NCBI RefSeq assembly: GCF_018332715.1 | Contig: NZ_BOQP01000001.1 | Coordinates: 124,001 to 188,000 of the forward strand | Reading direction: 5' to 3' | Length of the DNA stretch: 64,000 bases | DNA from: Winogradskya consettensis | GTDB taxonomy: Bacteria; Actinomycetota; Actinomycetes; Mycobacteriales; Micromonosporaceae | The notes under the pieces: model-generated | The model's database searches: none | Told to the model about the DNA's origin: nothing | What the model saw: the letters and a program-made list of their open reading frames with translations, nothing else | Shown here: positions 4,921-21,943 of the stretch, in pieces | Layout: each line of letters opens with the position of its first letter | Position numbering within the stretch: the first letter of the stretch is position 1 | Translations under genes and position numbers: made by a program

Positions 4921-5123
4921 ACCAACCTCCCCTGATCGCGAGCGATGCTTGCAGCTCCACGTTTCCGACGTGTTACCCAGCGTCAGCAGTACATTTTGAT
5001 CATTCCACGGGTACGCGCTCCGCACCGGAGAAGAAACGCCGTCGGTGAGCAACCGGGCGAATGTGCTGCCCCGGAACTCCCCGAGGCGTCAGAATCGATG
5101 TCGGGCTATGTACGTTTGCTCCC

Positions 5124-8100: not shown

Positions 8101-8243
8101 ACGGCGCCCGCATGGCTCCGGCCGTACGAGCAGAACTGTCCGATCTGTACGCCCGCAAAACCGGCAGCACTCCCGCCCAGGCCGCGGAGTGGTTCCTTGC
8201 CCTGGAAGCCGCCGGCCGCTACCAGCAGGACGTCTTCGCCTGA
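5124..8243 (+). CDS. Self-sufficient cytochrome P450-reductase fusion (CYP102, P450 BM3 type)
   Basis: A 1039-residue soluble fusion of a fatty-acid hydroxylase P450 with a diflavin reductase. Residues 1-465 are the P450 domain: oxygen-activation motif AGHETTSG, the ExxR helix in DEALRLHSP, and heme loop FGNGERACIG with the cysteine at residue 400, the same number as in BM3. Residues about 490-630 are the FMN flavodoxin domain (YGSNLGTSEDLA). The rest is the FAD/NADPH domain (RFYSISSSP, GPGTGVAPLRGF, YVCGDGARMAP). Against BM3, Arg47 (here R48) and Phe87 (F88, GDGLFT) are kept, but Tyr51 is replaced by Met52, so the fatty-acid carboxylate clamp is half conserved. The start is GTG at 5124, giving MTAPIPAPRGLPVVGN. 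Substrate is inferred to be a medium or long-chain fatty acid. It stands alone, without the TetR-type repressor often found beside CYP102 genes. Confidence 0.95.
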   Translation: MTAPIPAPRGLPVVGNALQIPVTGGHRFFADLAAAHPGGIFKLNLAGRHVVMVYDPDLVAEVSDESRFHKPIDPPLAHVRDFAGDGLFTAYDGEESWGQAHRILLPAFSQRSMKAYFPQMLEVAQDLIGHWETRSDVDVTEDMTRLTLDTIALTGFGHAFHSFEQPELHPFLQAMGRALTEAMHRTRQLPAITGLKRKADAAYRADIARMQDLVDEVIRSRRASGEKAQDLLGLMLEAADPVSGVRLTDENIRNQVLTFLIAGHETTSGTLSFALHLLMRNPHVLAQAYAEVDRILPGDTVPTYETVMKLDVIPRILDEALRLHSPITAIGLMANHDTVLAGKYHLDAGQKVAVLLKPLHVHPGAWENPDEFDIDRWLPERKAARHPHAYKPFGNGERACIGRQFALTEARLALAMILQHFAISDPHGHQLAIKQTLTIKPDNLTLRVRPRQEHERLSVAATDDAPAAESVEVEASGVRLHVAYGSNLGTSEDLAQQLADRARRSGFDVTVQTLDELADDLPSEGLLAVVTSSYNGKAPDNAQRFDELDIPAGTLTGVRYAVLGNGNTQWTTYQAFPSRVDAALAAAGATPIVARGETDAAGDFDAMATAWLDGLWSALAASFGATSDAAPAASRYSVEVLGEDQVRPAVVSAQAYPVTVVSIDELTRPFALPAGVARPGVKAVTVRLPEGVTYEAGDHLAVYAKNHPELVAWALGVLRVPRDRVLRLAQDGNRPSSLPIGVPVTAELLLTEFVELQEPATRSQLAVLTAHTGCPWTTGQLAALTPEELLEKRVSVLALLERFPAIELPFGVFLSLTGTIRPRFYSISSSPAADPSLATLTVGLVDGPALAGQGRYRGMCSQYLARLTPGDTFFGHVRVPAPPFRPPADPRTPMILVGPGTGVAPLRGFLQDRAAQPARGPAKLFYGCRHPEHDFLYRDELLAWEASGVVDLHLAFSAQEEHPHRYVQHALAAAGDEVWELLDQGAHVYVCGDGARMAPAVRAELSDLYARKTGSTPAQAAEWFLALEAAGRYQQDVFA

Positions 8244-9685: not shown

Positions 9686-10159
9686 TCAGGCTGGGTTGGC
9701 GAGGTGGCCGAGGGGGAGTGGGCCGCGGCTCTTGACGGTGCGGATGGCGAAGGTGCTGCGGGCGTCCACGATGGTGTCGATGATCAGGATCTGGTCGATC
9801 AGGATGCGCTCGTAGGCTGCGAGCGACGGCGCGGCGACCTCGACCAGGAAGTCGGCGTTGCCCGAGATGATGTGGCAGGCGACCACGGCGGGGATGGCGA
9901 TGAGGGCTGCCTCCACCTTTTGGGAGTTCTTCTGGGAGTGCCGTTCGACCTTGAGCTCGATGAAAATGGTCAGGTCGAGGCCGAGGCGTTCCCGGTCGAG
10001 TTCGGTGCGGTAGCCCGCGATGATCCCGGTCTCCTCCAGCGCGCGCAGCCGGCGCAGGCAGGCCGAGGGGGAGAGGCTGACCCGGGCGGCCAGATTGAGG
10101 TTGGAGATGCGCCCGTCGTCCTGCAAACATTCCAGGATCGCGATGTCGGTGTCGTCCAT
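9686..10159 (-). CDS. Lrp/AsnC-family transcriptional regulator
   Basis: A 157-residue regulator with an N-terminal HTH (DTDIAILECLQDDGRISNLNLAARVSLSPSACLRRLRALEETGII) and a C-terminal RAM/ligand domain (FIELKVERHSQKNSQKVEAAL, then ISGNADFLVEVAAPSLAAYE). Proteins of this family form dimers and octamers and sense amino acids. It is divergent from an amino-acid exporter-type gene 113 bp away, a pairing typical of Lrp-controlled amino-acid export. The shared gap has inverted CAACTT/AAGTTG half-sites about 30 bp apart, a possible binding region. The 250 bp downstream (9434-9685) has lower GC and no gene I can support. Confidence 0.93.
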   Translation of the reverse strand: MDDTDIAILECLQDDGRISNLNLAARVSLSPSACLRRLRALEETGIIAGYRTELDRERLGLDLTIFIELKVERHSQKNSQKVEAALIAIPAVVACHIISGNADFLVEVAAPSLAAYERILIDQILIIDTIVDARSTFAIRTVKSRGPLPLGHLANPA

Positions 10160-10272
10160 CGAACAACTTTATGCGCTGACGACGGCGTTTGGCGACCTGA
10201 AGTTGCGTCAGAGGCCGATCTTGGGGCCATCTTTGCCATCGCGTGCGGCGTCGTTTTTGCCAGGCTTGGATC

Positions 10273-11559
10273 ATGTCAATCACCGCCTCACGGGGCGTCG
10301 CACTCTACGTCGGCGCCCTGCTCGGCCCGGGCCTCCTGGTCCTCCCCGGGCTCGCCGCTGCACAGGCCGGCCCGGCGTCGATCATCGCCTGGATCGGCCT
10401 GCTGGTGCTCTCCGGCCTCATCGCCATCGTCTTCGCGGCCCTCGGCGTCACCCGCCCCTCCGCAGGCGGCGTCGCCGAATACGCCCGCATCGGCCTCGGC
10501 GACCGCGCCGGCCGAGCCGTTCGCTGGCTCTTCCTCGCCGGCATCACCACCGGCGCGCCACTGGCCTGCTACATGGGCGCCGGCTACCTCGGCGGCAACC
10601 GCATCACCACCGCCATTGCCTCGGCGGTGCTGCTGCTGGTCGTCCTCGCGGTGACCCGGCACGGCGTCCGAACCTCCACCACGATGCAACTCGTCCTGGT
10701 CGGACTGCTGCTGGCGGTCATCCTGCTCGCGGTCGGCGGAGCAGCCCCCCACTCCCGAACGGCCAACTGGACCCCGTTCGCCCCACACGGATGGTCGTCG
10801 ATCGGCCCGGCCGCCACGGTCCTGATGTTCTCCTTCGTCGGCTGGGAGGCGATCGCCTCGCTGACCGGCCGCTTCACGAACCCCCGCCGCGACCTGCCCC
10901 GCGTCATCGGCGTGGCCTTCGCCATCACCACAACCATCTACCTGACACTGGCGTACGTGACGGTGGCCGCCCTCGGCGACACCGCCGCCACGGCCACCCC
11001 GATCGCCGCCCTGCTGGAACTCGGCATCGGCACCGCGGGCCCGGCCGTCGCCGCAGTCAGCGCGGTGATCCTCACCCTGGGCACGGTCAACGCCTACCTG
11101 ACCGGCGGGATGCAGATGGTCGCCCGACCCAGCCGTTTCACCATTGCCATCCTGGTCACCGAAGCAGCCTTGCTCACCCTGCTCGGCACGGGCACCATCT
11201 CGACCACGGTCGCGGTCACCGTACCCACAGCCTGCTTCCTGCTGGTCTATCTGCTCTGCATGCTCTCCGCGATCCGCTCGCTGCCGGGCTTGACCCGCCC
11301 GATAGCCGCGGTGGTGGCGGCTGCCGTCGTGGTCGTGCTGAGCTTCGGCGGGTACGCGGTGGTGCCCGCGATTCTCCTCACGGTCGCCGCCTTCGCCCTG
11401 CCGCTACGACGAGGCGAGGAGCTCAGTTCCAGGCGTTCGAGGTGCAACCTTGCGAAGGCCCACCGGGAGAGCAGTCGCAGGGATCGCGTTGCGACGCCGT
11501 GCCCGCGTGCCCAGGGCGCCACCCGAGCCAGGGGCGAAGCAGGGCGACGCCGTCGGTGA
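10273..11559 (+). CDS. APC-family amino-acid transporter (YjeH-like exporter)
   Basis: A 428-residue membrane protein with about 11-12 transmembrane helices. The N-terminal part (GVALYVGALLGPGLLVLPGLAA, then FAALGVTRPSAGGVAEYARIGLGDRAGRAVRWLFLAG) resembles E. coli YjeH, an exporter of methionine and branched-chain amino acids; FSFVGWEAIASL and the NPRRDLPRVI stretch also fit. I use the ATG at 10273; two further in-frame start-like codons lie upstream, and no strong Shine-Dalgarno is visible for any. The final 45 residues after LPLRRGEEL are very basic and read into the space before the convergent GH20 gene, so the C-terminus may be recently extended. The divergent Lrp regulator probably controls it. 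Confidence 0.85.
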   Translation: MSITASRGVALYVGALLGPGLLVLPGLAAAQAGPASIIAWIGLLVLSGLIAIVFAALGVTRPSAGGVAEYARIGLGDRAGRAVRWLFLAGITTGAPLACYMGAGYLGGNRITTAIASAVLLLVVLAVTRHGVRTSTTMQLVLVGLLLAVILLAVGGAAPHSRTANWTPFAPHGWSSIGPAATVLMFSFVGWEAIASLTGRFTNPRRDLPRVIGVAFAITTTIYLTLAYVTVAALGDTAATATPIAALLELGIGTAGPAVAAVSAVILTLGTVNAYLTGGMQMVARPSRFTIAILVTEAALLTLLGTGTISTTVAVTVPTACFLLVYLLCMLSAIRSLPGLTRPIAAVVAAAVVVVLSFGGYAVVPAILLTVAAFALPLRRGEELSSRRSRCNLAKAHRESSRRDRVATPCPRAQGATRARGEAGRRRR

Positions 11560-11600: not shown

Positions 11601-13022
11601 CTACCGGCGGAGGTCGGCGGTCATCTCGGCCAGTTCGGTGAGGCGGTCGGGGAGGGTGCGGGGGTTTCCCGGGGCGTCGGGGCGGGCGTCCCAGGGGCGG
11701 GGGCCGGTCAGGGGGCGGTAGTTGACGCCGAGGGCGTCCAGGCGGGTGAGGTGGGGGTCGAGGCGGGTGGTGAAGTCCTCGAAGGTGGCCGGGCCCCAGA
11801 CTGCTTCGGCGAAGGCGCACAGGCGGGGGTAGGCCATGTAGTCGACACGCCTGGCGGATTCCATGTGTTCGGTCCAGATGTTGGCCTGGCCGCCGAGGAC
11901 GAGGTCGGAGTCGACGCCGGGGGTGAAGGCGTACACGTCGGCGAGGGTGAGCAGGGTGCCGACCGGGGTTGGTTCGAGGGGGTCGTCGGACTGGCGGTAG
12001 TCCAGATAGGTGGAGATGTCGGGACAGGCCACAACCTGGTGACCGGCCGCGACCGCCGCCGCAGTGGGGAACGGCCCGCGCCAAGCGGCGATCACCGCGT
12101 CGGGAGGGGCGCCACCGGCCAGGATCTCGTCCCAGCCGAAGACGCGACGGCCCCGGGTGGCGAGAAACAAAGCCATCTGGGCAGTGAAGCGGGGCTGGAC
12201 CGTTGTGTCGCCGCCCCATTCCTCCACGGGGCACTCGTCGCCGCCGATGCCGATCAGGGGCGACGGGAAGATGTCGCAGAGGTGGTCCAGGACCGCGCGG
12301 CAGAAGTCGAGGGTTGCCGGCGTCATGTTGAGGACGTGCGACGAGATGCCCCAGGAGGTGCGGACCGGGCCTTCAAAACCATTGCCCAGCGAGGGGTACG
12401 CCGCGATGGCCGCCTGCATGTGACCGGGCATGTCCACCTCGGGAACCACGGTGACGTGGCGTGCGGCGGCGAAGGCGACGATTTCGCGCAGGTCGTCGGC
12501 GGTGTAGTAACCCCCGTGCGGCCGGCCGTCGAACAACGCGTGCCGGCGTGAGCCCAGCATCGTCGACGTGCGCCAGGAGCCCACGGTGGTCAGTCGTGGC
12601 CAGCCGGGAACCTCCACGCGCCAGCCCTGGTCGTCGGTCAGGTGCAGGTGCAGGACGTTGAGTTTGTGGAACGCGGCGAGGTCGATGAAGCGCAGCACGT
12701 CGGCGACCGGCATGTAGTGCCGTGCGACGTCGAGCATGACGCCGCGCCACTCGTAGCGTGGCGAGTCGACGATCCGGCCGCACGGCACCTCCCACGGCCC
12801 GGCAGCACCGGAGCGCAGCGCCGCCGCGGGCATCAGCTGCCGCAATGTCTGGGTTCCGTAGAAGATCCCCGAGGAGGAGCCGCCCGCGAGGTCGATGCCG
12901 GAAGGCGAGATGTCCAAAATGTACCCAGAGGGTGGCAACGACGGATCGAGTCGCTGGTCAAACGAGCCGTCGGAGAGAAGGACGTCGCCGGAGAGGGAGA
13001 CCGAGACCGGGCGGGGGATCAA
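11601..13022 (-). CDS. Glycoside hydrolase family 20 beta-N-acetylhexosaminidase
   Basis: A 473-residue GH20 enzyme that removes terminal GlcNAc/GalNAc from the non-reducing end by substrate-assisted catalysis. The N-terminal domain (IPRPVSVSL to about residue 90) precedes the barrel with WRGVMLDVARHYMP, HLHLTDDQGWRVEVPGWP, VVPEVDMPGHMQAAIA and the catalytic pair D262-E263 in GIGGDECP. A tryptophan-rich FGWDEILAGG and WRG complete the site. No signal peptide is visible, so it probably acts in the cytoplasm on imported oligosaccharides. I place the start at a TTG overlapping the stop of the upstream permease (TTGA); this start is uncertain. It is the last gene of the ABC operon. Confidence 0.92.
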   Translation of the reverse strand: MIPRPVSVSLSGDVLLSDGSFDQRLDPSLPPSGYILDISPSGIDLAGGSSSGIFYGTQTLRQLMPAAALRSGAAGPWEVPCGRIVDSPRYEWRGVMLDVARHYMPVADVLRFIDLAAFHKLNVLHLHLTDDQGWRVEVPGWPRLTTVGSWRTSTMLGSRRHALFDGRPHGGYYTADDLREIVAFAAARHVTVVPEVDMPGHMQAAIAAYPSLGNGFEGPVRTSWGISSHVLNMTPATLDFCRAVLDHLCDIFPSPLIGIGGDECPVEEWGGDTTVQPRFTAQMALFLATRGRRVFGWDEILAGGAPPDAVIAAWRGPFPTAAAVAAGHQVVACPDISTYLDYRQSDDPLEPTPVGTLLTLADVYAFTPGVDSDLVLGGQANIWTEHMESARRVDYMAYPRLCAFAEAVWGPATFEDFTTRLDPHLTRLDALGVNYRPLTGPRPWDARPDAPGNPRTLPDRLTELAEMTADLRR

Positions 13023-13831
13023 TCCTTCACCGCCCCGCCGAGGCCGGACACCAGGCGGCGGCGTACCAGCAGGAAGAAGATCAGGACCGGCACGGTCATC
13101 AGGGTGGAGGCCGCCATGATGGCTCCCCAGTCGTTCTCGTCGGGTTTGAAGAAGACCAGCAGGGCCATCGGCAGGGTCTGCCGGTCGGTCGCGCTGATGA
13201 TGAACGTACGCGCGAACAGGAAATCGTTCCACGCGTGGATGAACGAGAACACGCTGGTGGCGGCGAGCCCGGGCGCGATCAGCGGGAACAGGATGCGCCA
13301 GAGCACGGTGAGCCGGGACGCGCCGTCGAGCTGGGCGGCCTCGTCGAGTTCGTCCGGGACCGCCGCGACGAACCCGCGCAGCATCCAGATGGCGAACGGC
13401 AACGTGAACGCGGTGTGGACCAGCATCAGGGAGCCGAGGGTGTTGAGGGCGCCCAGGTCGCGTACCAGGAAGAAAAGCGGGATGGTCAGGGCCTCGACCG
13501 GGACCATCTGGGCGATCAGGAAGACCACCAGGATCGTGGTGCGGAAGCGGAAGTGGAACCGGGTCAGCGCGACCGCGGCGAGGAACGCGATCAGGCCGGA
13601 GATCAGCACCACGACCAGCGCGACGATCAGGCTGTTGAGCAGGTACCGGCCGAAGTCGTTGACGGCCAGGACCCGGCGGAACGCGTCGAGCGACGGCGAC
13701 AGGGTCCAGGGGCGCTGGTGCAGGGACTGGATCTCGCCGGCCGGTTTGATCGCGGCGAGCACCATCCAGTAGATGGGGAAGATGACGACGGCGGCGATCA
13801 GGACCGCGAGGGCGTCCAGTACACGTCTCAC
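13019..13831 (-). CDS. Sugar ABC transporter permease, MalG/CUT1 type
   Basis: A 270-residue integral membrane protein with six predicted helices and the EAA loop DELDEAAQLDGASRLTVLWRILFPLIAPGL, which contacts the ATPase. GTG start overlapping the previous permease stop (GTGA). It forms a heterodimer with the next gene upstream. No ATPase gene is present, so the importer probably shares a multi-sugar ATPase (MsiK type) encoded elsewhere, as is normal in actinomycetes. Confidence 0.92.
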   Translation of the reverse strand: MRRVLDALAVLIAAVVIFPIYWMVLAAIKPAGEIQSLHQRPWTLSPSLDAFRRVLAVNDFGRYLLNSLIVALVVVLISGLIAFLAAVALTRFHFRFRTTILVVFLIAQMVPVEALTIPLFFLVRDLGALNTLGSLMLVHTAFTLPFAIWMLRGFVAAVPDELDEAAQLDGASRLTVLWRILFPLIAPGLAATSVFSFIHAWNDFLFARTFIISATDRQTLPMALLVFFKPDENDWGAIMAASTLMTVPVLIFFLLVRRRLVSGLGGAVKD

Positions 13832-14703
13832 AGCGGTTCTCCCGACCGGCGCAGCGTTCTGAGGTAGAGCACCGTCACGGCGAGCAGGATCAGCATCATG
13901 ACGACGCCGATCGCGGAGCCGAGGCCGTACTCGCTGGACGCGAAGGCCTGCTGGTAGGCGTACACGTTGAGGGTGAGGTTCTGGCCGGCCAGACCGCCGC
14001 CGCGGGTCATCACGTAGATCTGGGTGAAGATCTTGAAGTCCCAGATGATCGACTGGATGACCACGACGGCGAGGACCGGTCGCAGCATCGGGACCATGAT
14101 CTGCCAGAACGTACGCCAGGTGGACGCGCCGTCGAGCGCCGCCGCCTCGAGCACGGACCGGGAGATGGCCTCGATGCCGGCGTAGAGCGTGACCATCACG
14201 AACGGGAACGACGACCAGACGACCACGGCGCCGACCAGGGCGAACGCGGAGTAGCGGTCGTACATCCAGTTGAAGCCCTCCGTGCCGAGGAGCTGGTTGA
14301 CGAAGCCGAGGTCGGTGTCGAACAGGAACATCCAGACCGTGGAGCCGCTGACCGCCGGGACGGCCCACGCCGCCATGGCGGCCAGCGACAGCAGTAGCCG
14401 CGGCACCCGGCTGATCCGGGTGAGCAGCACCGCGAGGCCGGCGCCGACGGCGAGGGTCGCCACGACGCAGGCCGCCGCGAAGCCGACCGTCGCCAGCAGC
14501 ACCGACCAGAACTGCGGGTCGGTGAAGAGCTGGACGTAGTTGTCCAGGCCCACGAAGCGGGTCGGCTGCCCACCGCTGACCTGTGCCTGCCGGAAGTCGA
14601 GCACGGAGATGAGCCCGAGCTGGTACATCGGGTAGAGGAACAGCCCGCCGAGCACGACCGCCGCGGGCAGCAGCAGCCAGAGCGGTGTGAAGCGTTGCCT
14701 CAC
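13828..14703 (-). CDS. Sugar ABC transporter permease, MalF/CUT1 type
   Basis: A 291-residue permease beginning RQRFTPLWLLLPAAVVLGGLF, with six helices and the coupling loop EAISRSVLEAAALDGASTWRTFWQIMVPML. It lacks the large periplasmic loop of E. coli MalF, as usual in Gram-positives. GTG start overlapping the stop of the binding-protein gene. Second gene of the binding protein-permease-permease-GH20 operon. Confidence 0.92.
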   Translation of the reverse strand: MRQRFTPLWLLLPAAVVLGGLFLYPMYQLGLISVLDFRQAQVSGGQPTRFVGLDNYVQLFTDPQFWSVLLATVGFAAACVVATLAVGAGLAVLLTRISRVPRLLLSLAAMAAWAVPAVSGSTVWMFLFDTDLGFVNQLLGTEGFNWMYDRYSAFALVGAVVVWSSFPFVMVTLYAGIEAISRSVLEAAALDGASTWRTFWQIMVPMLRPVLAVVVIQSIIWDFKIFTQIYVMTRGGGLAGQNLTLNVYAYQQAFASSEYGLGSAIGVVMMLILLAVTVLYLRTLRRSGEPL

Positions 14704-15962
14704 TTCGTGAGGGCCGCGTCGACCTGCTTGGCCGCCTCGTCGGTGGCCTGCTCGACGGTGGACTTGCCGGTGGCGACCTTCTCGATCATCGTGGGCAGCA
14801 CGGCGGAGGCGTCGATCTTGCCCCAGCCCGGGTCGAGCGGGACGAACTTCGTGCCGTTCGAGATGGTGGTGATGAAGGGCTCGACGAACTTGTCCTTCGC
14901 GGCGACCACGGCGCTCGCTGACTTCAGTGTCGGCAGGTTGCCCATGGCGTCGTACATCTCGGACTGGTATTTCTTGCCCGCGAGCAGGGTGAGGAAGTCC
15001 GCGGCGAGAGCGGGTCGCTGGCTGTTCTTCATGATGCCCAGGTTGTTGCCGCCTGCGAACGCGGGTGCGATGGAGCCGGGCTTGCTGCCGGGCAGCGGGA
15101 CGACGGCGTACTTGCCCTTGGCCGCACCGGCGTCGACGGCCGCGCGGTTGAAGTTGCCCAGGATGCCCATCGCGGCTTTGCCGCTCGCAAACAGATCAAC
15201 GGTCTTTCCGCCGGTCAGGTCCGCGCACTGCTGCGGCGGGCAGTTGTCGTCGGCGATCAGATCCGTGTACGCCTTGAGCCCCGCCCGCGACTGCGCGGAG
15301 TTCAGCGACGTGATGTCCCCGCCGGCGTCCCACACGAACGGCATGGCGGCATACGTGTACTTGCCGCCGACCGCCACCCCGAACAGCTCCGGCTTCTTCG
15401 CCCGCACCGTGCGCGCCGCCGTGGTCAGCTCCGCGATGCTGGTCGGCACCTTGAGCCCGAGCTCCTGGAAGATGTCGGTGCGGTAGTAGAGCGCGCGCAC
15501 GCCGACGTACCAGGGGACACCGAGCAGAGTGCCCTCGTAGGTCGCGCTGGATTTCGCGTCGGGGCTGAGATCCGCGCCCTCGGACCACGCGGTGACGGCC
15601 GGGCCGACGTCGGCGAGCCCGCCCGCGGCGGCGTACTCCGGGAGATCGGTGTTGCCGTATTCGACGACGTCGGGGGCGCTGGCCGGGTCGTTGAACGCGC
15701 CCTTGAAGCGTTCGCTGCGCGTGTCGACCGCGATGTACGCGATGTCGACCTTGGTGCCCTGGTGGGCCGCGGTGAACTCGGCGACCGCCTCGTTGACGAC
15801 CTTCTCCTTGGGGGCCCGGTTCGGCTCGTCGAAGAGCCAGACCTTGAGCGTGCCGGTGCGCGCACCACCGTCGGACGGCGCGGCGCCGGGTGTGGACGTC
15901 GAGGGGGCGCACGCGGTCAGCGTGAGGGCGAGGGCGGCGGCCGTCGCCAGGCGCAGCTTCAT
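14700..15962 (-). CDS. Sugar ABC transporter substrate-binding lipoprotein
   Basis: A 420-residue extracellular solute-binding protein of family 1. The signal peptide ends in a lipobox LTLTAC with the lipidated cysteine at residue 18, so it is anchored to the outer face of the membrane. The mature part starts with LKVWLFDEPNR and contains the family stretch YGNTDLPEYAAAGGLADVGP. Ligand is not readable from the sequence; the GH20 gene in the operon suggests an N-acetylhexosamine-containing oligosaccharide. GGAG lies seven bases before the ATG. A three-half-site operator is 13-39 bp upstream of the start codon. Confidence 0.92.
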   Translation of the reverse strand: MKLRLATAAALALTLTACAPSTSTPGAAPSDGGARTGTLKVWLFDEPNRAPKEKVVNEAVAEFTAAHQGTKVDIAYIAVDTRSERFKGAFNDPASAPDVVEYGNTDLPEYAAAGGLADVGPAVTAWSEGADLSPDAKSSATYEGTLLGVPWYVGVRALYYRTDIFQELGLKVPTSIAELTTAARTVRAKKPELFGVAVGGKYTYAAMPFVWDAGGDITSLNSAQSRAGLKAYTDLIADDNCPPQQCADLTGGKTVDLFASGKAAMGILGNFNRAAVDAGAAKGKYAVVPLPGSKPGSIAPAFAGGNNLGIMKNSQRPALAADFLTLLAGKKYQSEMYDAMGNLPTLKSASAVVAAKDKFVEPFITTISNGTKFVPLDPGWGKIDASAVLPTMIEKVATGKSTVEQATDEAAKQVDAALTK

Positions 15963-15975
15963 GGGGGCACTCCAG

Positions 15976-16001
15976 ACGAACTATGTTCGTAAGTGGTTCG
16001 T
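15976..16001. promoter_or_regulatory. Operator in front of the sugar ABC/GH20 operon
   Basis: Three copies of one 6-bp half-site: ACGAAC (15976-15981), TAT, GTTCGT (15985-15990), AAGTG, GTTCGT (15996-16001). The first two form a perfect palindrome and the last two an 11-bp-spaced direct repeat, one helical turn apart. The 17-bp core GTTCGTAAGTGGTTCGT recurs exactly, on the opposite strand, at 17275-17291. It lies between the deaminase stop and the binding-protein start, consistent with repression of the ABC operon. Confidence 0.75.
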
Positions 16002-16072
16002 TGCTTGGGTGCCCCTCAGAGTGCGGCTGCGGCCTCCGCCCGTCAACCCTTCAGCATCGTTAAATCTGGATA

Positions 16073-17215
16073 TCAGAAGTACGTATGCAGGACATCTACG
16101 ACCACATCGGAATCGTCGGCGACGGGGATGAAGCGCCACTTGTCGAACGCCGTGCACGGGTGTGACAGGCCGAAACGCACCAGGTCACCGACGTTCAGCG
16201 AGTCGCTGCGTACATAGGTGTGGTGGTCGTTCATCTTGAGCACCTCACCGGCCGTGGTCGTGGGCAGGCCCTCGTCGAACGGCGCGTCGCGTTTGCCCAT
16301 GCCGACGATCGCGAGCCCCGGCTCCGGAGTGGACAGCACCTGCGCGTAGATCTCGAGCGCCGCGGTCAGCGAGCCCTCGGCGGCGACCCGGTTGAACGGC
16401 GTACGTTCCTGGTAGAAGCCCTCGTCGTGGGTGACCGACGCACCACTGCGCAACACCGTCCGCAGGGTGTGCCCCTCGATCTCGAGCCCCTCGAAGGCCT
16501 TGATCACGCGGTCGAACCAGGCGCTGCCACCTGCGGAGAGGATGACTTCGGCGGGCAACAGGTCGGCAATGGCCCGCAACGCCTCGACCTGAGTGGCCAG
16601 GAACTCGTCGACCTCGGCCACCGTCTTCAGCGCGCCCTCGTAGGCGGTCACCCCGACGACATTCGCACCTGCCCTGGCGACCTTCACCACCTCTTCGACG
16701 GTACGGCAGCCCGTGCGCCCGCCGTGATGACCGAGCTCGACCAGGACCTTCAGCCCGCCGGCCGCCGCGATGCGGTCGACCCCGGCCACCGAGTCGACCT
16801 GCACGAACACGTCCCAGCCCGCCTTCGACTCCTGCGACAGCCAGCGCAGCGCGGTCGGGTCGAGCACCTCGTTGGCAATGATCACTCTGGGTACGCCGAG
16901 GCGGCGCAGCACCAGCGCCTGGCTCGCGGTCGCCGCGGTCTGCGCCCACGCACCCGCGTTGAGCTGGGCTTCGAGCAGGCTCGGCGCCATCGACGTCTTG
17001 GCGTGCGGGGCGAACGAGAAGCCGTGCCGCTGGGCGTAGGCGGCCATCGTCGCGATGTTCGCGCGCACGGCGGAGTCCCGGACGACCAGGAGCGGCCAGG
17101 TGAACGTACCGTCGAAGAGGTTGTGCCTTGCCGCGGCGAACTCACTCGCCTTGACCTGGCCTTCCGGCAGCCAGAAGCCCTTGGTGCGCCAGTCGATGAT
17201 TTCGTCGGGGATCAT
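16073..17215 (-). CDS. PLP-dependent D-amino-acid deaminase (D-serine dehydratase/D-threonine aldolase-like)
   Basis: A 380-residue fold-type III PLP enzyme of the alanine-racemase N-terminal plus D-serine-dehydratase-like C-terminal family. The PLP lysine is in FAPHAKTSMAP (K73). GHHGGRTGCRT and GSAWFDRV contact the cofactor phosphate in relatives. The C-terminal SHPCTAFDKWRFIP holds the His-x-Cys zinc pair that eukaryotic-type D-serine dehydratase needs for beta-elimination. The likely reaction is D-Ser (or D-Thr) to 2-oxoacid plus ammonia through a 2-aminoacrylate-type intermediate. The RidA gene in the facing operon fits that intermediate. It is transcribed toward the ABC operon and divergently from the regulator, with a shared operator in its promoter. 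Confidence 0.85.
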   Translation of the reverse strand: MIPDEIIDWRTKGFWLPEGQVKASEFAAARHNLFDGTFTWPLLVVRDSAVRANIATMAAYAQRHGFSFAPHAKTSMAPSLLEAQLNAGAWAQTAATASQALVLRRLGVPRVIIANEVLDPTALRWLSQESKAGWDVFVQVDSVAGVDRIAAAGGLKVLVELGHHGGRTGCRTVEEVVKVARAGANVVGVTAYEGALKTVAEVDEFLATQVEALRAIADLLPAEVILSAGGSAWFDRVIKAFEGLEIEGHTLRTVLRSGASVTHDEGFYQERTPFNRVAAEGSLTAALEIYAQVLSTPEPGLAIVGMGKRDAPFDEGLPTTTAGEVLKMNDHHTYVRSDSLNVGDLVRFGLSHPCTAFDKWRFIPVADDSDVVVDVLHTYF

Positions 17216-17274
17216 CTTCGCTCTCTCCTAGGGTTGACCGTGGTGGGGACTTCGCGCATTGTGTGGAAGCTACT

Positions 17275-17291
17275 ACGAACCACTTACGAAC
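17275..17291. promoter_or_regulatory. Operator in the divergent deaminase/regulator promoter
   Basis: ACGAACCACTTACGAAC is the exact reverse complement of the 17-bp core at 15985-16001: two ACGAAC half-sites as an 11-bp-spaced direct repeat. It is 60-76 bp upstream of the deaminase start and 14-30 bp upstream of the regulator start, so one bound protein could control both directions. Confidence 0.8.
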
Positions 17292-17304
17292 GTTGGGAGC
17301 GTTG

Positions 17305-18600
17305 ATGGTGATCGGCCTGGTGTGCCATGCCGGCCATCGTGCCCGGTTCGCCGAGGCCGCGCGCACCCTCACCGGCGTGACGTTCGCGTGGGCGATCTAC
17401 GAGCGCGAGGACGAGATCCGCGAGCGGGTGGCGGCTCTGCTGCGCGACCAGACCCTGGACGGGCTCCTGCTGGGCCTGGTTCCGTACGCCCGGAGCCGCG
17501 ACCTGCTCCCGCCCGCCCTGCCCGTCACGGTGACCCGCTCGGCGGCGCTCGACCTGGCCCTCGCCTGGTCGCGGGCGCGCGGCAACGGCTGGCCCGCCAC
17601 CCCGGTCAGCATCGACACGTTCACCCAGGAGACCGTCGACGAGGTCGCCACCGCGCTCGACCTGGACCGGTCGCTGATCGCCTGCCAGCCGTTCGACCCG
17701 GCGCAGTCGATCGCCGACGTCGTCGCGTTCCACCGGGACCGCGTGGCCGCCACCGGGGCGTCCTATGTGATCAGTGTGCGCACGGGGGTGGCCGCGGCGC
17801 TGGACGGGCAGGTGGCTGTCCTGAACGCGCTGGCGACGCCGGGGACCATCCGGGCGGACCTGCACGAGCTGGCTCTGCGCGTACGCAACAAGAAGGCCGA
17901 CGGTCAGCGCTTCGCCGCCGGTGTCTTTCTGGTCGCCTCCCCGCAGGAGAGTCCCGACCTGGACCGGGCGCGGGTGGGTCTGCAGCATCTGCTCATGAAC
18001 ACGCCCGAGTTCGCCGACGCGTGGATAGACAACCGGGGCCGCCGGGGAGTCGTCGTGTTCGCCCACGCGGCCCTGTTCGAGACGATCACCCACCAATGGG
18101 TCGGCCTGCCCGTCCTCGCCGAGATCCGGGACTCCCTCGGCATCCGGGCGGTGGCCGGTTTCGGCATCGGGGATTCCGCCCGGGTCTGCGTCGCCCTCGC
18201 CGAGCGGGCCGCCGCGCGCGCCGAGCAGGACGCTGATCCGGGCGCGTACCTCATCTCCGACAACGGCATGATGATCGGCCCGATGGGTGCCTCGGGGGTG
18301 CCGCTCACCTACACCTACCGCGAGCACGGCGGCATCGAGGCACTCGCCGCCCGGGTCGGGCTGAGCCCGGCCACCCTGTCCCGGCTCGCGGCGATCGAGC
18401 GCAGTCTCGGCGGACGCCCGGTCTCACCCGGCGACCTCGCCCGTTCGCTGGGCATCACCGACCCGAGCGGACGCCGGCTGATCCGCAAGCTCAGCGGGTC
18501 GGGGCTGGCGGTCGACGACGGCAGCTCGCAGGTACACCGCAAGGGCCGCCCGACCCGGCTCTACCGCCTCGCCATCACCGCAGCCCTGGATCCGGCCTGA
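17305..18600 (+). CDS. Transcriptional regulator of unrecognised family with C-terminal winged helix
   Basis: A 431-residue protein with no family name I can give. The last 75 residues look like a winged helix-turn-helix (VSPGDLARSLGITDPSGRRLIRKLSGSGLAV followed by a basic wing, HRKGRPTRLYRL). The N-terminal 110 residues start IGLVCHAGHRARFAEAARTL and may be a sensor. The centre has GIRAVAGFGIGDSARVCVALAERAAARAEQ, reminiscent of degenerate GGDEF/cyclase-like regions. ATG at 17305 with GGGAG seven bases upstream; longer readings would translate the operator. It is the first gene of an operon with the amidohydrolase and RidA (TGATG overlaps) and sits directly beside its presumed operator. I infer that it regulates itself, the deaminase and the ABC/GH20 operon. 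Confidence 0.6.
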   Translation: MVIGLVCHAGHRARFAEAARTLTGVTFAWAIYEREDEIRERVAALLRDQTLDGLLLGLVPYARSRDLLPPALPVTVTRSAALDLALAWSRARGNGWPATPVSIDTFTQETVDEVATALDLDRSLIACQPFDPAQSIADVVAFHRDRVAATGASYVISVRTGVAAALDGQVAVLNALATPGTIRADLHELALRVRNKKADGQRFAAGVFLVASPQESPDLDRARVGLQHLLMNTPEFADAWIDNRGRRGVVVFAHAALFETITHQWVGLPVLAEIRDSLGIRAVAGFGIGDSARVCVALAERAAARAEQDADPGAYLISDNGMMIGPMGASGVPLTYTYREHGGIEALAARVGLSPATLSRLAAIERSLGGRPVSPGDLARSLGITDPSGRRLIRKLSGSGLAVDDGSSQVHRKGRPTRLYRLAITAALDPA

Positions 18601-19811
18601 TGATCTACGACCTGGTTCTGCGGAGTGCGACGGTTCACGGTCACGGTGTCACCGATCTTGCCGTCCATAACGGACATATTGCCGCGATTGGCCCCGGCCT
18701 GTCCGGCCGTGTTTGGTCAGATCTGTCCGGCCTGGTGATCACGCCCGGCCTGGTCGACCTGCATACCCACGTCGGGCCCGGCTACTGGGGGATCGACCCC
18801 GACCCCATCGCCTGGCACACCGGCGTCACCACCTGGGTCGACGCCGGATCCGCCGGGGCGTACACCCTCTCCGGGCTGCGCCGGGTCGCCGACGCCGCGG
18901 CCGTCCGGGTGCCCGCGCTGCTCAACATCTCCGCCGTCGGGCTCGCCGGGCGGACGGGGGAGAGCCGCGACCTCGCCAACTGCGACGTCGCGCTGGCCAT
19001 CGACACGATCCAGGCCAACCGCGACCTGATCCGTGGCGTGAAGGTGCGCATCGACCGCGAAACCGTCGGCGACAACGGCGTCGAACCTCTGCGCCGGGGC
19101 CTGGCCGCCGCGTCGGCCTGCGACGTGCCGGTCATGGTCCACATCGGTGCCGCCCCGCCGGCTGTGTCCTCGGTTCTGGAGCTGCTGCGGCCTGGCGACA
19201 TCGTGACGCATTGCGCTTCCGGCATCGCCGCGCCGCTCGGGGATGCCGCGTCCGAGGCTTACGAGCGCGGGGTGCTGTTCGATATCGGTCACGGCTCGGG
19301 CGGGTTCGCGTTCGACGTTGCCGAGGGGCAGCTGGGGGCGGGGCTCCGGGCGTACACGATCTCGACCGATCTTCACGCACGCTCGCTGCACGGCCCGGTC
19401 TTTGACCTGCCCACCACGCTCATGAAGCTCGTCGCCATCGGCCTGCCCCTGCCTGACGCGATCGACGCGGCCACCGTGCACCCGGCTCGCGCCCTCGGGC
19501 TGCCCGGCGGCGTCATCGAGGTCGGCGCCCCCGCGGACCTCGCGGTCTTCCGCGTGGAGGAGGGCTCGTTCGAGGTTGTCGACGCCCACCGTCAGGTCCG
19601 CCACGCCCCGCTCCGGCTGATCAACAAGGCCACCTACGTCGGTGGCACCCTGCTGCCGCCGCGCCTGCCGGCTCCGCCACCGTCGTGGATCCCGCTCACC
19701 GAAGCCCAGCGGGCCGCCCTGACCCGCCGCGACAATGACATCCGCACCCTGCTCTCAGCCCCTCTGGTGGGCGCCGAGGACCTGGCCGAACAATTCCCGA
19801 GGAGCTCCTGA
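18600..19811 (+). CDS. Amidohydrolase, N-acetyl-D-amino-acid deacetylase type (COG3964-like)
   Basis: A 403-residue metal-dependent amidohydrolase. Visible ligands are H55 and H57 in DLHTHVGPG, the bridging lysine K148 in GVKVR, H181 in MVHIG, H204 in VTHCA and catalytic D257 in STDLHARS. The GYWGIDPDPIAWHTGVTTWVDAGSAG stretch, broken here only for reading, and the DIGHGSGGFAFD motif match the dihydroorotase-like subfamily whose studied members (for example Atu3266) hydrolyse acetylated D-amino-acid-like or acetyl-hydroxyacid substrates. With a D-amino-acid deaminase and RidA next to it, deacetylation of N-acetyl-D-amino acids is the likely role. ATG overlaps the regulator stop (TGATG). Confidence 0.8.
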   Translation: MIYDLVLRSATVHGHGVTDLAVHNGHIAAIGPGLSGRVWSDLSGLVITPGLVDLHTHVGPGYWGIDPDPIAWHTGVTTWVDAGSAGAYTLSGLRRVADAAAVRVPALLNISAVGLAGRTGESRDLANCDVALAIDTIQANRDLIRGVKVRIDRETVGDNGVEPLRRGLAAASACDVPVMVHIGAAPPAVSSVLELLRPGDIVTHCASGIAAPLGDAASEAYERGVLFDIGHGSGGFAFDVAEGQLGAGLRAYTISTDLHARSLHGPVFDLPTTLMKLVAIGLPLPDAIDAATVHPARALGLPGGVIEVGAPADLAVFRVEEGSFEVVDAHRQVRHAPLRLINKATYVGGTLLPPRLPAPPPSWIPLTEAQRAALTRRDNDIRTLLSAPLVGAEDLAEQFPRSS

Positions 19812-20191
19812 TGCCGAAACGCGCCATCATCACCGACAAGGCCGCCCCCGCCGGCGGCCCCTACTCCCACGCCGTCATCGCCGGCGACACCATCTACCTG
19901 GCCGGCGCGATCCCCGCCCTCCCCGACGGCACCCGCGTCACCGGCTCCTTCGCCGAGCAGGCCCACGCGGCGTTCAAGAACCTGGCCGCAACCGCCGAGG
20001 CCGCAGGCGCCAGCCTCGACGACGCCGTCCGCATCGGCGTCTACCTGCGCGACTTCGCCGACTTCCCCGAACTCAACAAGATCTACCCCGAATACATCAA
20101 GGGCGACAATCTCCCGGTACGCACCACGCTGCCGGTCGCCCTGGTCGGCTTCGACATCGAAATCGACGCCGTCCTCTACACGGGCGCCTGA
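19811..20191 (+). CDS. RidA-family enamine/imine deaminase
   Basis: A 126-residue YjgF/YER057c/UK114 protein that hydrolyses reactive 2-aminoacrylate and related imines released by PLP enzymes. The start AIITDKAAPAGGPYSHAVIAGD, the GAIP motif and the substrate-binding arginine in LPVRTTLPV are conserved. The ATG overlaps the amidohydrolase stop. In this operon it would quench the imine made by the D-amino-acid deaminase. Its last 16 bp overlap the end of the convergent interrupted gene. Confidence 0.93.
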   Translation: MPKRAIITDKAAPAGGPYSHAVIAGDTIYLAGAIPALPDGTRVTGSFAEQAHAAFKNLAATAEAAGASLDDAVRIGVYLRDFADFPELNKIYPEYIKGDNLPVRTTLPVALVGFDIEIDAVLYTGA

Positions 20192-20777: not shown

Positions 20778-21302
20778 TCAGGACCGCACATCAGCCTCAG
20801 GATCAGCAGCCGGATCAGGCTCCACCAGCAACCGCGCGTAGTTCGCCATCGACCGCTGATACCGCGGCAGATGCGGAGCCAACGCCGCGACAGCGATCGA
20901 CACGGCCTCCCGCTCCCGCCCCGCATCGGTCAGCACCAACGCCAGCACCGCGGCCACCGCATCGGAGAGCTCATCAGCGGGCAGCGCCCGCTCCGCCTCC
21001 AGAAGGGCGATACTCCGCTGCAGGTCACCGACGTTCCGCAGCGAACTGGCCAACTGAATCGAAGCCCGCCGCCGCCGGTATCCGGTCAACCCCAGCTCGA
21101 TCGCCTGCGTATAGAGCGGAACCGCGAGATCACTGTGCCCGGTCGAGTCGAGCGAACAAGCCCGCTCGAACAACCCCACCGGATGCTCCGGATCGAGCTC
21201 CTTCACCAGCTCCTCGATCAGCATGAGGAACTCCGCCTCCGACCGCTCATCGATCGAGGCCCAGGCCGCGGTCACCCGCTCTTCCCATTCCGTAGTGATC
21301 AT
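20778..21302 (-). CDS. Tetratricopeptide-repeat protein (TPR_5-like)
   Basis: A 174-residue, entirely helical protein with TPR-like repeats: PVGLFERACSLDSTGHSDLAVPLYTQAIELGL, SIQLASSLRNVGDLQRSIALLEAER and AVAAVLALVLTDAGREREAV (each a helix pair). Small TPR proteins of this size are common in actinomycetes, with unknown partners. ATG at 21302 follows a G-rich Shine-Dalgarno (GGAGGGTGGGGGG); reading further upstream is possible but gives unlike sequence. The amber-interrupted gene starts two bases after its stop, so the pair is probably an operon. Confidence 0.75.
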   Translation of the reverse strand: MITTEWEERVTAAWASIDERSEAEFLMLIEELVKELDPEHPVGLFERACSLDSTGHSDLAVPLYTQAIELGLTGYRRRRASIQLASSLRNVGDLQRSIALLEAERALPADELSDAVAAVLALVLTDAGREREAVSIAVAALAPHLPRYQRSMANYARLLVEPDPAADPEADVRS

Positions 21303-21490
21303 CCCCCCACCCTCCCACGCCACGCGGGGTGACGCCTGCGAGTAACGGGCCGCCGGAAAGCGAGCATCACCCGTGAGTGGGGTTCGGGTTGACGGTCGCC
21401 GGTGGTTGCTGGTCGGATGGCGGGAGCGTCGCAGTGCGCCCGGTTCGGAGGCCGCCGTGGGCATGGAGGCGTGGGGCCAAGGGGATTTCC

Positions 21491-21943
21491 TTGGAGACAT
21501 CAGGGGAGTACGCGCGCTTTCTCGCGTACGGGAATCAGCTTGTGGAAGTGCATCTCAGCTTGCGTGAAATGCTTGCGGATCTGCGCGACGGGGTGGTGCC
21601 CGACGATGAGCTCGCGGTGTTCTGCCTTTCCTTCTGCACCGCGGTGACCAGGCATCATGTGGGTGAGGACCGGGAGGTTTTCCCGGTGCTGGCTGCCCGG
21701 CATCCCGAGTTGCGCTCCTTTTTGGACGCTCTGCAGCGCGACCATGTGGTGATCGCTTCCATTCTCGGGCGGTTGAACGACCTGGTGGGGGATTCCGTAA
21801 AGCTGGGGCAGGAGCTGGATGGGCTTGCCGCGGTGCTGGAGACGCACTTCATCGGGGAGGAGAAACGGTTGGCGGGGGTGCTCAATGCCCTGGACCCTTC
21901 CGTGGGATTGACCCCTCTCACCGAGGCCGTAGAGTTTCGGTAG
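21491..21943 (+). CDS. Hemerythrin-like HHE-domain protein
   Basis: A 150-residue four-helix protein of the hemerythrin cation-binding family. Potential di-iron ligands are H21, H55/H56 with E59 (RHHVGEDREVFP), H85 (RDHVVI) and H119 with E123 (ETHFIGEEKRL). Such proteins bind oxygen, sense redox state or protect against peroxide and nitric oxide. I use the TTG at 21491 because AGGGG lies six bases upstream and the reading METSGEYARFLAYGNQLVEVH gives a compact HHE domain. An upstream start at 21377 would add 38 residues of poor quality. Confidence 0.85.
   Translation: METSGEYARFLAYGNQLVEVHLSLREMLADLRDGVVPDDELAVFCLSFCTAVTRHHVGEDREVFPVLAARHPELRSFLDALQRDHVVIASILGRLNDLVGDSVKLGQELDGLAAVLETHFIGEEKRLAGVLNALDPSVGLTPLTEAVEFR

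What the first reader, a model, noticed from the sequence alone, without database searches (positions are those of the whole stretch)
11601..20191. A putative regulon for amino-sugar and D-amino-acid salvage
GH20 hexosaminidase, a sugar ABC importer, a PLP-dependent D-amino-acid deaminase, an N-acetyl-D-amino-acid-type deacetylase and RidA lie together with one regulator, linked by a shared 17-bp operator core. The chemistry fits a route from N-acetylated sugar/D-amino-acid material (peptidoglycan debris or secreted glycoconjugates) to 2-oxoacids: cut the sugar, deacetylate, deaminate, quench the imine. Related clusters in actinomycetes are known to me only with other regulator types, so this combination may be new. 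The functions come from families; the pathway is inferred.
Basis: partly seen in the sequence, partly recalled or inferred. Interest (0 to 1): 0.7.

Follow-up and report, generated by a model that had tools for sequence, protein, structure and literature searches.

The report
Soil actinomycete oxidised-chitin-sugar salvage cluster
A gene cluster in Actinoplanes-like soil bacteria most likely imports and digests N-acetylglucosaminic acid, the oxidised sugar that chitin-cutting monooxygenases leave behind, using a different deacetylase, importer and switch from those known in marine bacteria.

Summary
In detail: GH20, sugar ABC importer, D-serine-dehydratase-like deaminase, amidohydrolase, RidA and one regulator lie together, with an identical 17-bp site at two promoters. 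In 200 family genomes the degenerate site occurs 24 times (reversed control 0), each time in this cluster. The same enzyme types form the marine ong pathway for C1-oxidised N-acetylglucosamine (GlcNAc1A). Key evidence: in a second, unnamed actinomycete family, orthologues of this amidohydrolase typically sit with an OngC-like deaminase, RidA, a KDG-kinase-like protein and a 47-50% homologue of the GlcNAc1A transporter OngIT, some also with KDPG aldolase; no OngB-like gene was seen in those loci. So the amidohydrolase (cog3964 type, not D-aminoacylase) probably replaces OngB. The window version differs: ABC import, cytoplasmic GH20, its own regulator, a direct-repeat operator, KDG kinase candidate elsewhere. 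New variant of a known kind; nothing is assayed. Against: no KDG kinase in any of 36 Micromonosporaceae loci searched; LPMO and KDPG aldolase are near-universal in the family and prove nothing.

The parts
11601..13022 (-). GH20 beta-N-acetylhexosaminidase, no signal peptide seen (taken as cytoplasmic); TTG start overlapping the abcG stop
   Evidence: PF00728 E 1.8e-92; start and overlap; N-termini of 25 cluster GH20 ORFs read by eye, several with truncated called starts; no signal-peptide program was run
13019..13831 (-). ABC importer permease, MalG type
   Evidence: PF00528; GTGA overlap with abcF
13828..14703 (-). ABC importer permease, MalF/UgpA type
   Evidence: PF00528
14700..15962 (-). 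solute-binding lipoprotein of the importer
   Evidence: PF01547 E 1.3e-34; lipobox LTAC by eye
15976..16001 (-). operator 1 at the SBP promoter: ACGAAC-N5-ACGAAC direct repeat plus an inverted third half-site GTTCGT; 17-bp core 15985-16001
16073..17215 (-). fold-type-III PLP deaminase, OngC/D-serine dehydratase-like (proposed D-glucosaminate deaminase)
   Evidence: PF14031, PF01168; 35.8% to OngC over 388 columns, E 9e-62; HAKT and SHPC motifs
17275..17291 (+). operator 2 between the divergent deaminase and regulator genes (17-bp core)
17305..18600 (+). regulator: about 345 residues without a Pfam match and a C-terminal winged HTH
   Evidence: orthologue in 32 of 150 family genomes
18600..19811 (+). 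cog3964-type amidohydrolase (proposed N-acetylglucosaminate deacetylase); putative metal-site residues H55, H57, K148, H181, H204, D257
   Evidence: PRK09237 model E 3.6e-100, under its cut-off; residues invariant in 10 aligned members; ong-like loci
19811..20191 (+). RidA-family protein
   Evidence: PF01042 E 2.2e-25

Best explanation
This is a Micromonosporaceae regulon for taking up and degrading C1-oxidised chitin oligomers, most simply GlcNAc-GlcNAc1A (chitobionic acid), made by lytic polysaccharide monooxygenases. Proposed steps: (1) the lipoprotein and two permeases import the oxidised disaccharide (inferred); (2) the cytoplasmic GH20 splits it into GlcNAc and GlcNAc1A (inferred from family and the missing signal peptide); (3) the cog3964 amidohydrolase deacetylates GlcNAc1A to D-glucosaminate plus acetate, in place of OngB (inferred from its occurrence with OngIT-like, KDG-kinase-like and KDPG aldolase genes in another family); (4) the OngC-like PLP enzyme eliminates ammonia from D-glucosaminate to give 2-keto-3-deoxygluconate (KDG), with RidA hydrolysing the enamine/imine (inferred by homology; OngC does this in vitro, OngD's role is unknown); (5) a KDG-kinase-like protein and KDPG aldolase encoded elsewhere in the genome yield pyruvate and glyceraldehyde-3-phosphate; (6) the regulator binds the direct-repeat operators at both promoters. 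That the operator is conserved and confined to this cluster (as an exact degenerate pattern) is shown; binding, sign and ligand are inferred (most likely repression relieved by GlcNAc1A or glucosaminate).
For: Enzyme content matches the proven ong pathway type for type: GH20, deacetylase, OngC-like deaminase, RidA. Of the 10 amidohydrolase orthologues at about 49% or more outside the family (L176-L185), 9 have a deaminase adjacent, 7 RidA (56-63% to the window's), 7 a KDG-kinase-like PfkB protein, 4 a KDPG aldolase and 6 a full-length OngIT-like symporter (46.7-49.7%); no ORF there had OngB or the Tsukamurella D-aminoacylase as best match. OngIT is a discriminating marker: in 72,556 plasmid records (E up to 1e-10) 10 match at 51-100% and 5 at about 29% or less; the two unannotated high-identity loci checked carry OngA, B, C, D, R and KdgK, the one low-identity locus checked carries none. 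Amidohydrolases of the window cluster and of the ong-like loci share one clade (SH-aLRT 99) apart from 16 distant ones. 26 distinct regulator loci: amidohydrolase 26, RidA 26, deaminase 24, GH20 23, SBP 19; 8 amidohydrolase loci without regulator: RidA 4, deaminase 3, GH20 1, SBP 0 (duplicate genomes merged by hand). In 4 genomes of family f18 close kin of the deaminase directly abut GH20; in 3 genomes of family f20 more distant kin abut a KDG-kinase-like gene. The window's genome has one KDPG aldolase match with a PfkB kinase beside it whose best NCBIfam model is KDG/KDGal kinase, far under its cut-off.
Against: No KDG kinase, KDPG aldolase, OngB, OngR or OngIT homologue (E up to 1e-12) in any of 36 Micromonosporaceae loci of 15-21 kb (L007-L022, L081-L100). 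KDPG aldolase (144 of 150) and LPMO_10 (140 of 150) are nearly universal in the family, so their presence in all 32 regulator-bearing genomes is uninformative. 14 of 28 deaminase rows have no operator in the region searched: in 10 the gene is detached from or not divergent to the regulator, in 1 it is divergent, in 3 the locus has no regulator. The deaminases of the ong-like f18 loci are nearer to the Tsukamurella one (8 of 9 by best match) than to the window's; G197 keeps a GH20-deaminase pair and the amidohydrolase-deaminase locus apart, with two paralogues. Deaminase relatives also abut a D-aminoacylase-family gene (L149, L162) or amino-acid ABC transporters. The amidohydrolase is an orphan without deaminase in 5 of 8 loci lacking the regulator. 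The f18 kinases match the CF6-2 KdgK only weakly, 25-30% in 4 of them. No activity was measured.
Confidence: 0.72

Rival explanations
1. One reading: salvage of N-acetyl-D-amino acids and D-Ser/D-Thr from peptidoglycan debris, with the GH20 freeing the sugar part.
For: The deaminase is D-serine-dehydratase-like (PF14031; best PDB match 3gwq named D-serine deaminase); some relatives sit with amino-acid ABC transporters and RidA or with a D-aminoacylase-family gene (L149, L162).
Against: The amidohydrolase is not of the D-aminoacylase family; its f18 orthologues sit with KDG-kinase-like, KDPG aldolase and OngIT-like genes; the importer is of sugar type; no amino-acid transporter belongs to the conserved cluster (the permease at 10243-11559 is shared with W. 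humida only among the loci compared).
Confidence: 0.12
2. The same chemistry on another 2-acetamido-2-deoxy aldonate (for example N-acetylgalactosaminate) or a glycoside of one.
For: GH20 enzymes can cleave beta-GalNAc as well as beta-GlcNAc (recalled); nothing in sequence fixes the stereochemistry; a DSD relative on a Comamonas plasmid sits with genes annotated as 2-dehydro-3-deoxygalactonokinase and its aldolase; the window genome's kinase best matches a bifunctional KDG/KDGal model.
Against: OngIT-like partners in f18 point to the GlcNAc1A transporter.
Confidence: 0.11
3. Two unrelated functions share a regulator: chitobiose import/hydrolysis (SBP-ABC-GH20) and detoxification of D-amino acids (deaminase, RidA).
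For: The deaminase is detached from or not divergent to the regulator in 10 relatives, and SBP is missing in 7 of 26 distinct regulator loci.
Against: Both halves share the operator, and GH20 and deaminase also abut in 4 f18 loci where this regulator and importer were not seen.
Confidence: 0.05

Closest known systems
ong gene cluster / oxidative chitin utilisation pathway of Pseudoalteromonas prydzensis (PMC9537276; abstract, sections 13, 17, 40 and passages seen)
   Same: GH20, GlcNAc1A deacetylase position, OngC-like fold-III PLP deaminase, RidA; pathway order
   Different: deacetylase from cog3964 instead of D-aminoacylase-like OngB; ABC importer and cytoplasmic GH20 instead of periplasmic OngA plus SSS OngIT; its own regulator instead of MurR/RpiR OngR; KDG kinase not in the cluster; Actinomycetota, whereas the paper reports the complete pathway in Gammaproteobacteria and one Achromobacter
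PpOngB GlcNAc1A deacetylase family (PMC12017989; passages seen)
   Same: proposed reaction; amidohydrolase superfamily
   Different: PpOngB is a mononuclear subtype V, D-aminoacylase-like enzyme; the window enzyme keeps an HxH...K...H...H...D set and aligns with the CF6-2 OngB over 59 residues only
cog3964 / PRK09237 / EF_0837 amidohydrolases (PDB 8wzy, 2ogj, 2ics)
   Same: near whole-length homology (E 2.4e-56 to 3.5e-62) and the putative metal-site residues
   Different: 335 bits, under the PRK09237 cut-off of 371; neighbours of this clade in f18 are sugar-acid genes. The name cog3964 for this group is recalled, not from a call
Actinomycete KdgK / IclR / DSD / D-aminoacylase / RidA clusters (Tsukamurella plasmid; three genomes of family f20)
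   Same: DSD-type deaminase and RidA
   Different: these use a D-aminoacylase-family deacetylase and carry a KdgK-like gene and IclR; the Tsukamurella one and two of the three f20 loci also a gluconate symporter

Membership tests
ong GlcNAc1A cluster | OngC-like PLP deaminase | tested here: met
   35.8% to the OngC of CF6-2 (E 9e-62), HxKT and SHPC motifs
ong GlcNAc1A cluster | GH20 hexosaminidase in the cluster | tested here: met
   32.6% to OngA over 322 columns; location differs (no signal peptide seen)
ong GlcNAc1A cluster | RidA protein (OngD) | tested here: met
   PF01042; family level only: no match to OngD at E<=1, 34% to the Tsukamurella RidA
ong GlcNAc1A cluster | D-aminoacylase-like deacetylase OngB | tested here: not met
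   amidohydrolase aligns with OngB over 59 aa only; no OngB homologue in 36 cluster or amidohydrolase loci at E<=1e-12
ong GlcNAc1A cluster | KdgK in the cluster | tested here: not met
   none in those 36 loci; candidate elsewhere in the genome beside KDPG aldolase; KdgK-like in 7 of 10 amidohydrolase loci outside the family
ong GlcNAc1A cluster | SSS transporter OngIT | tested here: not met
   ABC importer instead; OngIT-like in 6 of 10 amidohydrolase loci outside the family
ong GlcNAc1A cluster | MurR/RpiR regulator OngR | tested here: not met
   no RpiR model among the matches; no OngR homologue in the 36 loci
ong GlcNAc1A cluster | conversion of GlcNAc1A to KDG | not testable with these tools
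   needs enzyme assays
D-aminoacylase (N-acyl-D-amino-acid deacylase) | whole-length D-aminoacylase similarity | tested here: not met
   best model PRK09237; OngB and the Tsukamurella D-aminoacylase align over about 60 aa
cog3964/PRK09237 amidohydrolase | whole-length match over the curated cut-off | tested here: inconclusive
   335.2 bits against a cut-off of 371; near whole-length PDB matches
cog3964/PRK09237 amidohydrolase | metal ligands HxH, K, H, H, D | tested here: met
   present and invariant in 10 aligned members; ligand roles recalled from the superfamily
Fold-III D-serine dehydratase-like enzymes | PF14031 and PF01168 over cut-off | tested here: met
IclR / MarR / RpiR regulators | family domain order and whole-family match | tested here: not met
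   only an HTH at the C-terminus (HTH_IclR 23.1 bits against 22, MarR_2 23.7 against 27); no family matches the first 343 residues

The most novel reading that the evidence does not exclude
A clade of cog3964 amidohydrolases is a second, independently derived family of N-acetylglucosaminate deacetylases, and actinomycetes built around it a Gram-positive oxidative-chitin pathway that imports oxidised chitobiose intact by ABC transport and cleaves it in the cytoplasm, under a regulator of a so far unnamed family with a Pfam-less sensor region and a direct-repeat operator of its own.
Probability: 0.5. Interest if true: 0.72.

Novelty: new variant of a known kind. Interest (0 to 1): 0.6.

Why it matters
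Soil actinomycetes carry many LPMO genes (LPMO_10 in 140 of 150 family genomes), but what becomes of the oxidised ends is described, in the papers found here, only for mostly marine Gammaproteobacteria. If right, this gives the missing route in a large group of soil bacteria, assigns a testable function to part of the poorly understood cog3964 family, and shows the GlcNAc1A deacetylase step being filled by two different amidohydrolase families.

Tried and rejected
KDPG aldolase and LPMO presence as tests of the pathway: near-universal in the family (144 and 140 of 150 genomes), so not informative. Further operator sites upstream of KDG kinase or LPMO genes: all 24 exact degenerate sites in 200 genomes lie in the cluster; no site with one mismatch or fewer in the 10 amidohydrolase loci outside the family; sites with two mismatches in the window's genome (list cut) were not examined. 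The regulator's homologues at about 25-31% identity lie without the cluster's other genes near them in 1.5-kb flanks, and in L057 with DegT aminotransferases, Amidohydro_2 and DHDPS-like proteins and sugar ABC genes; the nearest, at 35% (L053), sits with an ABC importer, an enolase-superfamily enzyme, amidohydrolases, a creatininase-like protein and an SDR: suggestive of sugar-acid ligands, not proof. Amidohydrolases at 33-46% identity sit with other partners (for example a protein that looks SelA-like by eye) and were not used. Structure prediction of the regulator was not obtained. My ORF caller misplaced some starts and missed some genes (for example L008, L083); one search repeats the counts by tblastn.

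Literature: searches of the open-licence library. One search found 5 papers (4 listed) holding two or more of OngB, OngC, GlcNAc1A, oxidative chitin: passages of three were seen (PMC9537276 and PMC12017989, where a search for 'actino' found 0 occurrences; PMC11653859, on Aeromonas), and of PMC10535946 only the listing. None of the 15 papers listed (of 889) holds GlcNAc1A. In some searches only the top rows of longer lists were shown. Subscription papers are not held, so absence from print is not claimed beyond these searches.
Full report
What is there. The window lies in a 10.6-Mb actinomycete genome whose regulator gene is 97% identical to that of Winogradskya humida. Two coupled gene rows flank a deaminase gene: SBP-abcF-abcG-GH20 to the left and regulator-amidohydrolase-RidA to the right. 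By eye GH20 has no signal peptide and the SBP has a lipobox. None of the cluster's proteins matched an ABC ATPase family; a shared MsiK-type ATPase is assumed (recalled).

The operator. ACGAACCACTTACGAAC occurs in the window exactly at 15985 (-) and 17275 (+); these are the two perfect matches of ACGAACNNNTNACGAAC in the genome. ACGAACYANTWACGAAC has 24 matches in 23 of 200 family genomes, 0 for the reversed pattern; in all 24 the flanks encode SBP, REG, DSD or GH20 of this cluster. In the fetched loci 26 of 29 regulator rows and 21 of 21 SBP rows have a site with two mismatches or fewer in the 300 bases around the called start (rows include the window and genomes counted twice; two of the three misses are one genome with a miscalled start). 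The alignment shows a third, inverted half-site, about ACGAAC-N5-ACGAAC-N3-GTTCGT; in the window it is complete at the SBP promoter and not at the regulator promoter.

Conservation of the cluster. Regulator orthologues were found in 32 of 150 family genomes. Over 28 regulator-bearing loci (26 distinct after merging L008 with L081 and L017 with L088, judged from contig lengths; window not counted), the amidohydrolase is present in 26 of 26, RidA 26, deaminase 24, GH20 23, SBP 19; in 8 amidohydrolase loci without regulator, RidA 4, deaminase 3, GH20 1, SBP 0 (the genome of one of the 8, L083, has the regulator on another contig). The 20 loci L081-L100 were picked by me for diversity of genus from the 72 genomes with a match; 16 of the others (L007-L022) were found by the regulator itself.

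Which substrate. Paper PMC9537276 (abstract, sections 13, 17, 40 and passages seen) proves in Pseudoalteromonas a pathway in which OngA (GH20) frees GlcNAc1A, OngB deacetylates it, OngC (fold-III PLP enzyme, also active on D-Ser and D-Thr) makes KDG and ammonia, and KdgK phosphorylates KDG; OngD (RidA) is needed for growth but its role is unknown. I read an ong cluster in Pseudoalteromonas sp. CF6-2, record NZ_CP091443; the accession CP091443 is listed in that paper. The window deaminase is 35.8% identical to its OngC, the GH20 32.6% to OngA over 322 columns; the amidohydrolase is not an OngB (59 aa aligned); RidA did not match OngD at E up to 1.

The key result. I searched 394 genomes of the class for the window amidohydrolase (24 matches outside the window) and fetched 15 of these places. 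Ten hold it at about 49-59% (L176-L185), two of them in family f21 and eight in one unnamed family, f18. Over the ten: deaminase adjacent 9, IclR 8 by the ORF scan (a ninth, L185, by tblastn), KDG-kinase-like 7, RidA 7 (each nearest to the window's RidA, 56-63%), full-length OngIT-like symporter 6 (46.7-49.7%), KDPG aldolase 4; no ORF had OngB or the Tsukamurella D-aminoacylase as best match. Each locus covers about 8-9 kb on either side, so genes elsewhere in those genomes are not excluded. OngIT identity separates cleanly in the plasmid collection: 10 records at 51-100%, 5 at about 29% or less. Two of the high ones, Vibrio and Pseudoalteromonas, carry OngA, B, C, D, R and KdgK beside it, OngB at 56-57%; the one low locus checked (Arthrobacter) carries none (TonB receptors were not tested). 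So the amidohydrolase occupies OngB's place in otherwise ong-like loci, and the window's amidohydrolase belongs to the same clade (SH-aLRT 99 against 16 distant members; quick tree, no bootstrap).

Further support. The deaminase tree (51 rows, Comamonas entered twice; quick method, long branches flagged, OngC among them) groups the window's deaminase with f18 deaminases, four of which directly abut GH20 (L156, L157, L160, L161). Three f20 genomes have a more distant deaminase beside a KdgK-like gene, IclR, RidA and a D-aminoacylase, two of them with a gluconate symporter. The window's genome has one KDPG aldolase match, with a PfkB kinase right behind it, and six LPMO_10 matches, some short.

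Against. KDG kinase, KDPG aldolase, OngB, OngR and OngIT homologues are absent at E up to 1e-12 from all 36 Micromonosporaceae loci L007-L022 and L081-L100. KDPG aldolase and LPMO are near-universal in the family, hence uninformative. The deaminases of the ong-like loci are mostly nearer to the Tsukamurella enzyme than to the window's (8 of 9 by best match); in G197 a GH20-deaminase pair (L161) and the amidohydrolase locus (L176) are separate, and G223 and G189 also have two deaminases apart. Close kin of the deaminase abut a D-aminoacylase-family gene in L149 and L162, and remoter ones amino-acid transporters. Half of the deaminase rows (14 of 28) have no operator in the region searched. The f18 kinases match the CF6-2 KdgK only weakly; their naming rests on likeness to the Tsukamurella sugar kinase and the window genome's PfkB. 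All enzyme functions remain inferred.

The regulator. Only a C-terminal winged HTH is recognised; none of the nine families listed for the window protein (E up to 0.1) matches its first 343 residues, and the 25 families listed for the 37 aligned members are nearly all DNA-binding domains. The nearest homologue (35%, L053) adjoins an ABC importer, an enolase-superfamily enzyme, two Amidohydro_2 proteins, a creatininase-like protein and an SDR.

Verdict. It works like the ong pathway without being a member of the ong cluster as defined: OngB, OngIT, OngR and in-cluster KdgK are not met.

Noticed in passing
window 5061-8240 (+): A self-sufficient cytochrome P450 fused to flavodoxin, FAD and NAD domains (P450-BM3-like architecture).
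   Followed up: no
window 9686-11559: An Lrp/AsnC regulator (9686-10159, -) divergent from an amino-acid permease (10243-11559, +); among the loci compared the permease lies next to the cluster only in the window and in Winogradskya humida.
   Followed up: no
window 21377-21940 (+): A hemerythrin-domain protein near a TPR protein (20781-21500, -).
   Followed up: no
L161 versus L176 (same genome, G197); also G223 and G189: Some genomes of family f18 carry two deaminase paralogues; in G197 one abuts GH20 while the other lies in the ong-like amidohydrolase locus, so a split of specificities is possible.
   Followed up: partly
L086 5274-9373 and L087 8725-12764: Orphan amidohydrolase orthologues (61-64%) without deaminase or regulator in the locus, preceded by a sulfatase-like gene and a haloacid-dehalogenase-like gene (named from the sequence by eye).
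   Followed up: no
L054, L055, L057-L060, L063: Homologues of the regulator (about 25-29%) recur beside a shared set of genes that in L057 are DegT-type aminotransferases, Amidohydro_2 proteins, a DHDPS-like protein and a sugar ABC importer, apparently another uncharacterised cluster.
   Followed up: partly
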